Positions 5,788 to 9,960 of a DNA stretch of 64,000 nt are shown in pieces. The stretch comes from Massilibacillus massiliensis (GTDB lineage: Bacteria > Bacillota > Negativicutes > FLKF01), in NCBI RefSeq assembly GCF_900086705.1, contig NZ_LT575483.1:3229516-3293515 (forward strand), in the 5' to 3' direction. The notes under the pieces were generated by a model. It ran no database searches, had not been told where the DNA came from, and saw only the letters and a program-made list of their open reading frames with translations. Every line of letters begins with the position of its first letter. The stretch's first letter is position 1. Position numbers and translations under genes: made by a program.

Positions 5788-8164
5788 ACTTCGAATTGAC
5801 TCATAATGAAATGTAAATTTAGCTGGATTAATCAAATGTGCTATGTGCGGTGCACTTCGAATTGACTCATAATGAAATGTAAATGAAAAACTATGAGCAA
5901 AGTCATTAACATAATCAGTAAACTTCGAATTGACTCATAATGAAATGTAAATCTGCGCGTTATTTACCATGCTTTGGTAACTTCTTTACTTCGAATTGAC
6001 TCATAATGAAATGTAAATTCCCATGCTTTTATGTAATGACCGTTTATTTTATAAACTTCGAATTGACTCATAATGAAATGTAAATGTCTATTTGCATAGA
6101 TGTTAGCAATATTAATTGCTCACTTCGAATTGACTCATAATGAAATGTAAATGGCCTTACAGAAATATCTTTTGACGCGAGACTACCTACTTCGAATTGA
6201 CTCATAATGAAATGTAAATAACGAGTGTGGGTTAAAAGATGATGACAGTATTTGCAACTTCGAATTGACTCATAATGAAATGTAAATATCTGCTTTTTAT
6301 CTAATAAGGTACATAAACGTTTATAACTTCGAATTGACTCATAATGAAATGTAAATGCTTATCAAAATGTTACTGATATGGCTAACAAATTAGAACTTCG
6401 AATTGACTCATAATGAAATGTAAATATGGTAAAAAGTACAACTTTCACTGGTGAAGGCCAAACTTCGAATTGACTCATAATGAAATGTAAATGTAAACGG
6501 TACTGAAAGTACTTTTTGGTTGCTGAAAACTTCGAATTGACTCATAATGAAATGTAAATCTGCAAAAACATCAACCTCATGGGACATGCTAGGTACACTT
6601 CGAATTGACTCATAATGAAATGTAAATCAAGAAATGTTCTTGTCTACTTCGGCTGATATTGCACTTCGAATTGACTCATAATGAAATGTAAATCTGGCGA
6701 AGCTGATTTCGAAACATATTACAGTTTGAACTTCGAATTGACTCATAATGAAATGTAAATTTAAGACATTTAAATAATTCAAATTTTTCAGCAATACTTC
6801 GAATTGACTCATAATGAAATGTAAATGCGGTAAGGAGCTTGCTTTTTTTAGTGCTTCTCGTACTTCGAATTGACTCATAATGAAATGTAAATATGGCCAT
6901 TTCCCACATATCATGATAGCGATTTTTAACTTCGAATTGACTCATAATGAAATGTAAATTGAAGCTGTACACTTTTTCGGTTTTACTCATTTCACCACTT
7001 CGAATTGACTCATAATGAAATGTAAATAAAGGTCGATATGAGGACGAAGCAGGGGCAAAGGAAACTTCGAATTGACTCATAATGAAATGTAAATCTAAAA
7101 TTACATTTACGGTTTAGCCGTCGTGTTCCAACTTCGAATTGACTCATAATGAAATGTAAATTACCAGACGGTAATTTATCAAAAGCGAAATCTTTCAACT
7201 TCGAATTGACTCATAATGAAATGTAAATTGATGGACGGTGGGTTGCCGCAATTTTTGGGATATGACTTCGAATTGACTCATAATGAAATGTAAATGCTGA
7301 ATTTTTTACTAATTCAGCAAACATTGTAAGAACTTCGAATTGACTCATAATGAAATGTAAATTAATGATTTAGGAATGTCTACACAAAATAGAGACTTAC
7401 TTCGAATTGACTCATAATGAAATGTAAATGATGAAGATGGATATAGATTTTTTGGTAGTTCCAGCACTTCGAATTGACTCATAATGAAATGTAAATCTTT
7501 TAGAAACGAAGATTATGCTTTAGGTTTTTTGGACTTCGAATTGACTCATAATGAAATGTAAATTCGGATCTATGTAAGCAGTGAATTCAATTGGCACCGA
7601 CTTCGAATTGACTCATAATGAAATGTAAATTAACACCGACATCATTCGATGTAACCACACGTGCGAACTTCGAATTGACTCATAATGAAATGTAAATTGA
7701 TTTTATTGACTTTTCGCCATACATATGCTATAACTTCGAATTGACTCATAATGAAATGTAAATGAAGAAGCGAACAATGAAGCTGTTAAGGAAAAGCATA
7801 CTTCGAATTGACTCATAATGAAATGTAAATAAAGAAGTTTTTGAGATCACAAAACAGCTAGAGAATACTTCGAATTGACTCATAATGAAATGTAAATATT
7901 GAGCTTCTATGCTTGTATCGTGTTGCTTGTCAGAACTTCGAATTGACTCATAATGAAATGTAAATGCGGTTGGCCAAGTTGGCTCTGTAGATGCTGTTGT
8001 GACTTCGAATTGACTCATAATGAAATGTAAATTGGGAAGATAGCGGGACTTGTACACTGTATCTAGAACTTCGAATTGGCTCATAATGAAATGTAAATAG
8101 ATGTACATTAGATTCTGGTGGCAATGTTACTACACTCCGAATCGGCTCATAATGAAATGTAAAT
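5788..8164 (+). CRISPR. CRISPR array, 36 repeats and 35 spacers, no cas genes in window
   Basis: A 31-base repeat beginning ACTTCGAATT and ending ATGTAAAT occurs 36 times, starting at 5788, 5854, 5922, 5988 and so on to 8068 and 8134, with a period of 66-69. Spacers are therefore 35-38 bases and all appear different. Repeats 1-34 look identical. Repeat 35 (8068) has one change (A to G at position 12), and repeat 36 (8134) has that change plus two more (T to C at positions 4 and 10). This marks the right side as the old, leader-distal end and gives + orientation. The repeat length and its 3' end, giving an 8-base handle ATGTAAAT, resemble subtype I-B repeats, but with no Cas protein in the window the type is unproven. 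Apparent minus-strand ORFs made of repeating TFHYESIRS/LHFIMSQFEV peptides are only translations of the array. Confidence 0.98.
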
Positions 8165-8271
8165 TTTTCAGTTGTCTTTTTTACATGTCTAAAAAGAGAG
8201 GATGCCTGATCGTTTTAATATGGATTCATATTGATTGGGGATTCTCACCTCCACATAGAAAAGACCTCCTA

Positions 8272-8388: not shown

Positions 8389-8417
8389 TTGTCGAAAAAA
8401 GAAAAATTTGTTATAAT
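8389..8417 (+). promoter_or_regulatory. Promoter of peptide module 1
   Basis: TTGTCG (8389-8394), a 17-base spacer and TATAAT (8412-8417). The conserved module starts at 8425, seven bases after the -10, as expected for a transcription start. Confidence 0.75.
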
Positions 8418-8495
8418 TTGTGCAGGTGCTACGATAACGATAGGCGGTTAGTTCCCATTTGCGATCCACTACGGTGGAGGAATGGGGGTGATGCC

Positions 8496-8561
8496 ATGAA
8501 TGATACAAACTTAACATTGTTATTTTTTATCATCCTGGTTTTTGCCATAAAAAAAGATTAA
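8496..8561 (+). CDS. 21-residue hydrophobic peptide, candidate type I toxin (copy 1)
   Basis: The peptide starts MNDTNLTLLFF and ends VFAIKKD: a short polar N-terminus, one 12-13-residue hydrophobic core and a Lys-Lys-Asp tail. That fits a single-span membrane peptide. The second copy, at 9778-9843, encodes exactly the same 21 residues, although two codons differ (AAC/AAT for Asn and GTT/GTC for Val), which indicates selection on the peptide. GGGGGTG lies seven bases before ATG 8496, and a tiny overlapping ATG-CCA-TGA at 8491 may couple translation. It does not resemble Hok, Fst/Ldr, TxpA/BsrG, Ibs, TisB or the known C. difficile toxins by eye. Toxicity is inferred, not shown. Confidence 0.7.
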   Translation: MNDTNLTLLFFIILVFAIKKD

Positions 8562-8640
8562 CCGCCCTGCTACCAACAATGCGATTAATCTTTTAAACGT
8601 ATAAACTTGGGAGCTAACCGTTTATCGGTAGCACCTTTTA
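8549..8640 (-). ncRNA. Antisense RNA of module 1 (candidate antitoxin)
   Basis: On the minus strand a promoter (TTGACA, 17 bases, TATGAT; 8676 to 8648) starts transcription near 8640. A perfect-looking intrinsic terminator ends it: the hairpin 8593-8553 is followed by seven T residues (complement of A 8549-8555). The product, about 92 bases, is fully complementary to the 3' part of the peptide message, including the last codons. The A-run that encodes Ile-Lys-Lys in the peptide is thus also the T-run of the antisense terminator. Confidence 0.7.
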
Positions 8641-8647
8641 TATGTTT

Positions 8648-8676
8648 ATCATAAAACATATAAATTATACTGTCAA
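8648..8676 (-). promoter_or_regulatory. Antisense promoter of module 1
   Basis: Read on the minus strand: TTGACA (8676-8671), a 17-base spacer and TATGAT (8653-8648). The same two hexamers with the same spacing recur at 9956-9928, although the spacer sequences differ. Confidence 0.75.
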
Positions 8677-8814
8677 TAACTGCGTGAATTTTTTACTCTG
8701 CCAGATAAACGAGTTTTGATAAGATCATCAGCTTTGCGCTACTTAGACTCTCGCATAATAAAACAAAAAAACATAATTTTTACGATGAAAAATCATGTTT
8801 TGGTTTAGTTTTGC
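8677..8814. other. Intergenic AT-rich stretch with one inverted repeat
   Basis: Contains an AT-rich hairpin, AAACATAATTTTTA...AAAAATCATGTTT (about 8768-8801), which could terminate transcription in either direction. No ORF is seen. Confidence 0.4.
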
Positions 8815-8847
8815 TTGCAATCGCTAAGAAATGTAATATAATTAGGA

Positions 8848-9107
8848 ATAGGTGGAAATTAAAAAAGTCGCCGTGTCCTAAGAGTGCGGGAACACTTTTA
8901 GGCACGAGCAGGTGAGTTAGCACCTACACGTAACAGCTAGCTGTCTACGACGACAATTTATTATACCGTGCTTTTTCCTTGAAAACAAGGTAGGAGTGCG
9001 TTTTGTGTGATAAATTGAAGTTTTTGGCAGAAGGGCTTAGCGTCGGCATGCAATGAGAAACGGAGCAAGCGCATGTGTAGGTAGAATAACCTCGCATGCG
9101 CTTTTTT
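8848..9107 (+). ncRNA. Candidate structured RNA, about 260 bases, between the two peptide modules
   Basis: A promoter (TTGCAA 8815-8820, 16 bases, TATAAT 8837-8842) precedes a stretch with no ORF but several stable helices. These are a long hairpin CGTG-t-CCTAAGAGTG / CACTTTTAGG-CACG (8872-8906), AGGTG/CACCT (8910-8925), the palindrome ACAGCTAGCTGT (8933-8944), an enclosing GTCG/CGAC (8867-8870 with 8951-8954) and CCTTG/CAAGG near 8978-8991. It ends in a good terminator at 9067-9107. I could not match it to 6S, SRP, tmRNA, RNase P or a riboswitch class I know. Confidence 0.55.
9067..9107 (+). terminator. Terminator of the structured RNA
   Basis: AAGCGCATG (9067-9075) pairs with CATGCGCTT (9095-9103), followed by a T-run. 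Confidence 0.85.
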
Positions 9108-9351
9108 AATTTCCCCTGAAACAAACTGTAGGTTGGTTTCTTCTAGCTGTGGTGTCAGCAGGTAGGAGAAGCCATCTGCAGGATGAGGATGGGGGAATAT
9201 AAATTGGGATCAGTCAACAGTAGCTTTAAACTGCGCCTAAGTATGTACACTGGTATGTGGCGAGACGGCATTCTCGCCGCATGCAACGGAAAAAATTCGC
9301 TCTATTTACAAGGAATGAAACATAGTTTCCCAAACAATAGGGTATTTATAA
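9108..9351 (+). other. Leader-like region before the 103-residue protein, several hairpins
   Basis: No ORF. Visible helices are GAAACAAAC/GTTGGTTTC (about 9118-9140), GCTG/CAGC inside CTTCT/GGAGAAG (about 9140-9171), CATC/GATG near 9173-9186, and GGCGAGA/TCTCGCC with ATG-flanks near 9257-9283. TTTCCCC at the left and GGGGGAA near 9191 could close a domain. It may be a long structured 5' leader or a separate RNA. Confidence 0.4.
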
Positions 9352-9663
9352 ATGTATAAAACCTATAGAACGGCGAAAGATACGATTATCGCGGCGGAAG
9401 TTGAGCACGAGGACATTACGCTGCAATTGCTCGCTGATTTAGATGGCAAAGAATATTTACTTCTTAAACGGCAAGATGAAACGACGATTTATCATCTGCC
9501 ATTGTCTGAGAAGATCAGTGAAATCGTGGACGATGTTTTATTTGAGGAATATAGAGCGATTACCTATGCAAAATTGGATCAGGAACTATTGGAACAGGGC
9601 ATTAAACCAAAAAGCTTGGAATCTTTAAAATTGTATTGGAAATATTTCGATCAAAAAGGTTAA
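9352..9663 (+). CDS. Uncharacterised 103-residue protein
   Basis: I do not recognise this protein. It is acidic and soluble-looking. The first half (about residues 10-55) reads as short beta strands (TIIAAEVEHEDITLQLLADL, EYLLLKRQDETTIYHLPL), and the second half is helical (KISEIVDDVLFEEYRAITYAK). It has no membrane segment and no Cys pairs. ATG 9352 follows an in-frame stop directly, so the start is firm, although the ribosome site (GGGTAT) is poor. Its stop is only a few bases before the promoter of peptide module 2, and a long structured stretch precedes it. Whether it belongs functionally to the two flanking peptide modules is unknown. Confidence 0.6.
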   Translation: MYKTYRTAKDTIIAAEVEHEDITLQLLADLDGKEYLLLKRQDETTIYHLPLSEKISEIVDDVLFEEYRAITYAKLDQELLEQGIKPKSLESLKLYWKYFDQKG

Positions 9664-9699: not shown

Positions 9700-9777
9700 G
9701 CAAATAGGTGCTACGATAACGATAGGCGGTTAGTTCCCATTCGCAATCCACTACGGTGGAGGAATGGGGGTGATGCC

Positions 9778-9843
9778 ATGAATGATACAAATTTAACATT
9801 GTTATTTTTTATCATCCTGGTCTTTGCCATAAAAAAAGATTAA
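9778..9843 (+). CDS. 21-residue hydrophobic peptide, candidate type I toxin (copy 2)
   Basis: Encodes the same peptide as 8496-8561, with two synonymous codon differences. It has the same GGGGGTG ribosome site inside a hairpin. See copy 1 for the composition and the limits of the toxin inference. Confidence 0.7.
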   Translation: MNDTNLTLLFFIILVFAIKKD

Positions 9844-9920
9844 CCGCCCTGCTCACAACAATGCGGTTAATCTAGTTTAATCACTTTTGGGAGCTAACCG
9901 TTTATCAGTAGCACCTTTTA
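9831..9920 (-). ncRNA. Antisense RNA of module 2 (candidate antitoxin)
   Basis: Starts near 9920 from the promoter at 9956-9928. It ends at the perfect 11-base-pair hairpin 9873-9837, followed by seven T residues on the minus strand (A-run 9831-9837). About 90 bases, fully complementary to the end of the peptide message. Confidence 0.7.
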
Positions 9921-9927
9921 TATTATT

Positions 9928-9956
9928 ATCATAATCGTAAAATTTCATACTGTCAA
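9928..9956 (-). promoter_or_regulatory. Antisense promoter of module 2
   Basis: Minus strand TTGACA (9956-9951), a 17-base spacer and TATGAT (9933-9928), the same layout as in module 1. Confidence 0.75.
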
Positions 9957-9960
9957 GTTA

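What the first reader, a model, noticed from the sequence alone, without database searches (positions are those of the whole stretch)
8848..9107. Unassigned structured RNA between the two peptide modules
A 260-base unit with a promoter, five or more helices (one of 14 base pairs at 8872-8906), an enclosing helix and a strong terminator, but no ORF. It does not fit 6S, SRP, tmRNA, RNase P or a riboswitch class I know, and its position between two toxin-like modules is striking.
Basis: partly seen in the sequence, partly recalled or inferred. Interest (0 to 1): 0.62.

Follow-up and report, generated by a model that had tools for sequence, protein, structure and literature searches.

The report
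Unrecognised switch-like leader RNA, many copies
The structured RNA is the 5' leader of a small protein gene; it recurs in 5 copies in this genome and in many related bacteria, matches no known RNA family, and looks like a two-state RNA switch that can hide or free the gene's ribosome-binding site.

Summary
The structured RNA is real (fold z = -6.8) and matches no Rfam 15 family, but it is not a free-standing unit ending at 9107. It is the 5' part of a leader of about 350 nt running from a conserved promoter (8815-8842) to a Shine-Dalgarno (9191-9195). Behind that lie a short leader ORF (9204-9359) and an overlapping 103-aa gene (9352-9663).

The genome holds five copies. I collected 155 distinct copies from Sporomusa, Pelosinus, Propionispira, Propionispora, Anaerospora, Massilibacillus and Desulfosporosinus. 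They precede at least nine families of mostly small proteins: DUF6809-like, SymE-like, LytTR and TyrR-like regulators, and unknowns. The 103-aa family was found only behind this RNA (19 of 19 hits).

One strand, UUUCCYCC, can pair either with the RNA's 5' end (helix P1) or with the Shine-Dalgarno. Both pairings are supported by compensatory changes, they exclude each other, and in 92 of 116 leaders the two states lie within 5 kcal/mol.

Best reading: an undescribed riboswitch-like cis-regulatory RNA class. The signal is unknown, and nothing here shows transcription or switching directly.

The parts
8815..8842 (+). promoter, -35 TTGCAA / -10 TATAAT
   Evidence: conserved in nearly all close copies
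8849..8868 (+). 5' strand of enclosing helix P1 (U)AGGUGGAAAUUAAAAAAGU; inferred start of the transcript
8849..8966 (+). highly conserved core (model R1), including the hairpins at 8870-8909 and 8910-8925 and the invariant UAUUAUAC
   Evidence: found in 33 of 380 genomes of the class
8955..9017 (+). long hairpin, variable in sequence and length between lineages
9068..9107 (+). conserved terminator-like hairpin GCGCAUG...CAUGCGC followed by U6
   Evidence: group II intron inserted just behind it in L043/L159
9101..9118 (+). 3' strand of helix P1, including the U-tract and UUUCCCC
9110..9116 (+). shared switching strand UUUCCCC (anti-Shine-Dalgarno): pairs with the 5' end in P1 or with 9191-9197
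9119..9186 (+). hairpin between switching strand and Shine-Dalgarno (expression platform)
9191..9195 (+). Shine-Dalgarno GGGGG, 8 nt before the start codon UUG
   Evidence: the same arrangement in most copies
9204..9359 (+). ORF1, 51-codon leader ORF (start UUG); its stop overlaps the start of ORF A
9352..9663 (+). ORF A, 103-aa small protein of a family with no Pfam or NCBIfam match above cut-off
   Evidence: 19 of 19 solid hits lie behind the RNA

Best explanation
A cis-regulatory leader RNA of an undescribed, riboswitch-like class. Transcription starts near 8849. A conserved core folds and is closed by helix P1 (8849-8868 with 9101-9118). P1 holds the UUUCCCC strand, so the Shine-Dalgarno at 9191-9195 stays free and the leader ORF and, by coupling, ORF A are translated. 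When P1 opens, UUUCCCC pairs with the Shine-Dalgarno and translation is off. A molecule or protein that stabilises or breaks the core would set the balance. The conserved hairpin and U-tract at 9068-9107 may add transcription attenuation and release a short RNA of about 260 nt. Shown by comparison: the conserved core, both covarying helices, their mutual exclusion, and the position before genes. Inferred: transcription, switching, direction (P1 = on) and the existence of a ligand.
For: 155 distinct copies by profile search; 33 of 380 genomes of the class and 14 of 74 of the order of G714, the Desulfosporosinus-type genome. Fold z -6.8. Own 5':3' strands of P1 pair better than reshuffled strands in 1000 of 1000 trials (-15.8 against -13.7 kcal/mol, z -11.8), and so do own anti-SD:SD strands (-12.7 against -11.7, z -6.0). 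Compensatory pairs are counted position by position. In 116 distinct leaders the two constrained states differ by a median of 0.4 kcal/mol and 92 lie within 5. Most copies have a start codon 5-12 nt after the G-run, and 139 of 146 carry a recurring downstream ORF. ORF A relatives: 19 of 19 behind the RNA. ORF1's stop falls at -3, +5 or +14 relative to the ORF A start in 19 of the 21 family-A copies scored, although ORF1's length and frame differ.
Against: No expression, probing or reporter data were available. The shuffled-partner test keeps base make-up but not relatedness, so its z-scores overstate the support. G-rich Shine-Dalgarnos pair easily with any C-run. Some copies (Sporomusa with the 61-aa family) have a more complex platform that my pattern did not resolve. 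The regulated genes are so varied that no ligand is suggested.
Confidence: 0.68

Rival explanations
1. A trans-acting small RNA that terminates at about 9107. The ORFs behind it are separate or coupled only loosely, and the core binds a protein or target RNA.
For: Conserved promoter and a conserved hairpin with U-tract; core sequence conserved more strictly than many leaders; a group II intron (RF02003) inserted just behind the U-tract in one copy, as group IIC introns do behind terminators (general knowledge).
Against: The U-tract is the 3' strand of a covarying helix; conservation continues to the Shine-Dalgarno; start codons sit at a fixed place behind it; ORF A was found only behind this RNA.
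Confidence: 0.17
2. Leader of a toxin-antitoxin-like small-protein module: the long structured 5' part keeps the mRNA inert until it is processed, as in hok or tisB mRNAs, rather than sensing a ligand.
For: Many of the proteins are small; SymE_toxin (PF08845) hits lie behind it in many loci; copies lie near peptide modules in this genome.
Against: No antisense RNA was tested or found over these ORFs; LytTR and TyrR-like regulators also sit behind the leader; the core is far more conserved than the protein families behind it.
Confidence: 0.1
3. A mobile element whose RNA serves its spread (guide or bridge RNA type, or a MITE).
For: Dispersed copies, patchy distribution, one copy in a prophage.
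Against: No transposase goes with it in the downstream ORFs; paralogues are 75-89% alike, not recent; homology ends at promoter and ORF end; G001 shares the window's downstream gene next to its copy, so that locus is inherited vertically; no plasmid or phage hits.
Confidence: 0.04

Closest known systems
Riboswitches with translational expression platforms (e.g. cobalamin, preQ1)
   Same: 5' leader; conserved core closed by a P1-like helix; one strand shared between P1 and sequestration of the Shine-Dalgarno; many copies before unlike genes
   Different: No Rfam class matches; core plus closing helix spans about 260-420 nt; genes are mostly small proteins of unknown function; ligand unknown
Orphan riboswitch candidates from comparative genomics (e.g. 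PMC2864571, PMC7266159)
   Same: Found by conservation and covariation upstream of genes
   Different: None of those held in Rfam 15 matches; restricted to Sporomusa-type Negativicutes and Desulfosporosinus and relatives in the sampled genomes
Structured type I toxin mRNAs (tisB, hok)
   Same: Long structured 5' region with a sequestered Shine-Dalgarno; SymE-like proteins downstream in many loci
   Different: Here the same core precedes unrelated genes, including transcription regulators; no antisense RNA known

Membership tests
riboswitch | conserved structured domain in the 5' leader | tested here: met
riboswitch | expression platform mutually exclusive with the core's closing helix | tested here: met
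   by sequence and energy only:
riboswitch | direct binding of a metabolite or ion without protein | not testable with these tools
   needs in-line probing
any Rfam 15 family (incl. SRP, RNase P, T-box, known riboswitches) | score at or above the gathering threshold | tested here: not met
   window and 19 loci holding copies from other lineages: none over the RNA
6S RNA | match to RF00013 | tested here: not met
   the only 6S in this genome is at C6:2468877-2469050
tmRNA / tRNA | ARAGORN call | tested here: not met
type III toxin-antitoxin RNA | tandem repeats in the RNA | tested here: not met
type I antitoxin RNA | antisense to the toxin mRNA | tested here: not met
   the RNA is on the same strand upstream of its ORF in the copies tabulated
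transposon guide or bridge RNA | adjacent transposase | tested here: inconclusive
   downstream ORF families show none; flanks were not annotated exhaustively

The most novel reading that the evidence does not exclude
The core is the sensor of a new kind of signal shared by these free-living anaerobes. In different genera it controls a whole set of small proteins and regulators, so that one RNA sensor defines a regulon of up to nine or more genes per genome.
Probability: 0.35. Interest if true: 0.85.

Novelty: new member of a known kind. Interest (0 to 1): 0.7.

Why it matters
It would add a large, strongly conserved and multi-copy regulatory RNA class to a bacterial group with few studied RNAs. 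It gives a direct handle on several small-protein families of unknown function (DUF6809-like, SymE-like, the 103-aa family) by showing that they share one control element. With many natural copies and compensatory variants, structure and switching can be tested at once.

Tried and rejected
Rfam at gathering and relaxed thresholds: only chance matches to archaeal, animal and plant-virus families. 6S, tmRNA, tRNA and tandem-repeat RNA rejected. Plasmid and phage collections: no match; one prophage hit in IMG/VR. The model of ORF A has pLDDT 51 and was not searched further. Hypervariable hairpin loops as guides: the loops vary freely but I found no partner, so I read them as unconstrained; this was judged by eye only. 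Spo0E for the 61-aa Sporomusa family: suggested by eye, not supported by Pfam. Literature searches for SymE or DUF6809 leaders and for RNAs of these genera found nothing relevant; subscription journals and preprints are not held.

Full report
Observation. The stretch 8848-9107 folds at -98.5 kcal/mol against -68.9 +/- 4.4 for 200 dinucleotide shuffles. It has a sigma-70-like promoter at 8815-8842, no tRNA or tmRNA, no tandem repeats and no Rfam match at gathering level or at relaxed thresholds beyond chance hits. Nineteen loci with copies from other lineages give no Rfam match over the RNA either. The genome's 6S RNA is elsewhere.

Copies. The genome has five copies. A DNA search of 60 genomes found more in relatives. 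A covariance model of the 118-nt core found it in 33 of 380 genomes of the class, in 2 others of 398 genomes drawn from the phylum, and in 14 of 74 genomes of the order of G714, one of those two. Named hosts of an exact pattern are Sporomusa, Pelosinus, Propionispira, Propionispora, Anaerospora, Massilibacillus, Desulfosporosinus and some MAGs. Matches per genome ran from 1 to 9; the class search scored only 9 candidates per genome, so higher numbers are lower bounds. In all I worked with 155 distinct copies. At least one lies in a prophage. The locus of G001 (L048) shares the gene downstream of the window copy, so the copy there is inherited with its surroundings.

Extent. In close copies homology starts at about 8758-8833, near or in the promoter region, and ends at about 9571-9660, close to the end of the ORF at 9352-9663. 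Distant copies keep the core (8837 to about 8970) and the hairpin with U-tract (9060-9116), with a variable hairpin between. Conservation does not stop at the U-tract: the strand UUUCCYCC, a hairpin, a G-run and a start codon follow. In the tabulated copies the G-run is usually followed 5-12 nt later by AUG, UUG or GUG.

Two exclusive pairings. P1 pairs the 5' end (AGGUGGAAAUUAAAAAAG, 8850-8867) with CUUUUUUAAUUUCCCCU (9101-9117). Most inner positions are paired in 60-68 of 68 distinct sequences, with changes on both sides at several positions, and the length of the A-tract follows that of the U-tract. The same UUUCCYCC strand pairs with the G-run: in 77 of 87 distinct sequences the helix has 7 or more continuous pairs, with many changes on both sides at its inner end. 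Own strands pair better than strands dealt out anew (P1 z -11.8, anti-SD:SD z -6.0, no shuffle of 1000 as good). These shuffles ignore relatedness and overstate the support. Folding 116 distinct leaders under each constraint gives a median difference of 0.4 kcal/mol, and 92 lie within 5 kcal/mol of each other; for the window P1 gives -149.3 and Shine-Dalgarno pairing -146.6. This is the anatomy of a translational riboswitch.

Genes. Of 146 copies with a readable 3' part, 139 carry one of a set of recurring downstream ORFs. Named families are DUF6809 (PF20648) and SymE_toxin (PF08845). Others are the 103-aa family of the window, a 61-aa Sporomusa family, a 55-aa Desulfosporosinus family, a family whose members read LTGQWMEKGDALRDW, and a family reading MLNQALEQYVxDRVD. 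A TyrR-like regulator (ACT and PAS domains found) occurs in four loci, in one of them before a beta-eliminating lyase of the tryptophanase type. A response-regulator-like protein read by eye as LytTR type occurs in three. The largest cluster is single-linkage and may merge related families. Relatives of ORF A: 19 solid hits in eight genomes, all behind the RNA by coordinates.

Window gene order. The Shine-Dalgarno at 9191-9195 serves UUG at 9204 and a 51-codon ORF1. ORF1's stop falls at -3, +5 or +14 relative to the ORF A start in 19 of the 21 family-A copies scored; the two exceptions are L030, where the first candidate start is a spurious one, and L147. ORF1's length and reading frame differ between copies. 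I read ORF1 as a coupling leader, not a protein of its own.

The hairpin with U-tract. In L043/L159 a group II intron (RF02003) has inserted just behind the U-tract, which fits a terminator-like site. The U-tract is at the same time part of P1, so attenuation and P1 formation may interact.

Verdict. An undescribed cis-regulatory RNA class that works like a riboswitch by its anatomy. Whether it is one depends on a ligand, which nothing here identifies.

Noticed in passing
8400-8680 and 9700-9960: Two near-identical modules with a 21-aa hydrophobic peptide (MNDTNLTLLFFIILVFAIKKD) and an opposing promoter, type I toxin-antitoxin-like. About 11 such modules are in the genome, 4 of them within 1.5 kb of a copy of the RNA.
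   Followed up: partly
about 5800-8165 (window), also L070, L084, L101, L107, L144, L206, L214: CRISPR arrays lie within about 3 kb of seven or eight RNA copies, on the upstream side in those seen; this seems more than chance, but no background was computed.
   Followed up: partly
L043 151-288, L159 151-288: Group II intron inserted in the 3' strand of P1, just behind the U-tract.
   Followed up: yes
8766-8801: An A/T-rich hairpin (AACATGATTTTT...AAAAATCATGTTT) just upstream of the promoter is conserved in several copies of this and related genera, perhaps the terminator of the previous unit.
   Followed up: no
8853: One U in the 5' strand of P1 is unpaired in all 67 distinct sequences scored, a conserved bulge or mismatch.
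   Followed up: no
L065 402-1968 and 2177-3134 (counted from the start of the RNA copy): TyrR-like regulator behind the leader, followed by a tryptophanase or tyrosine phenol-lyase type gene.
   Followed up: partly
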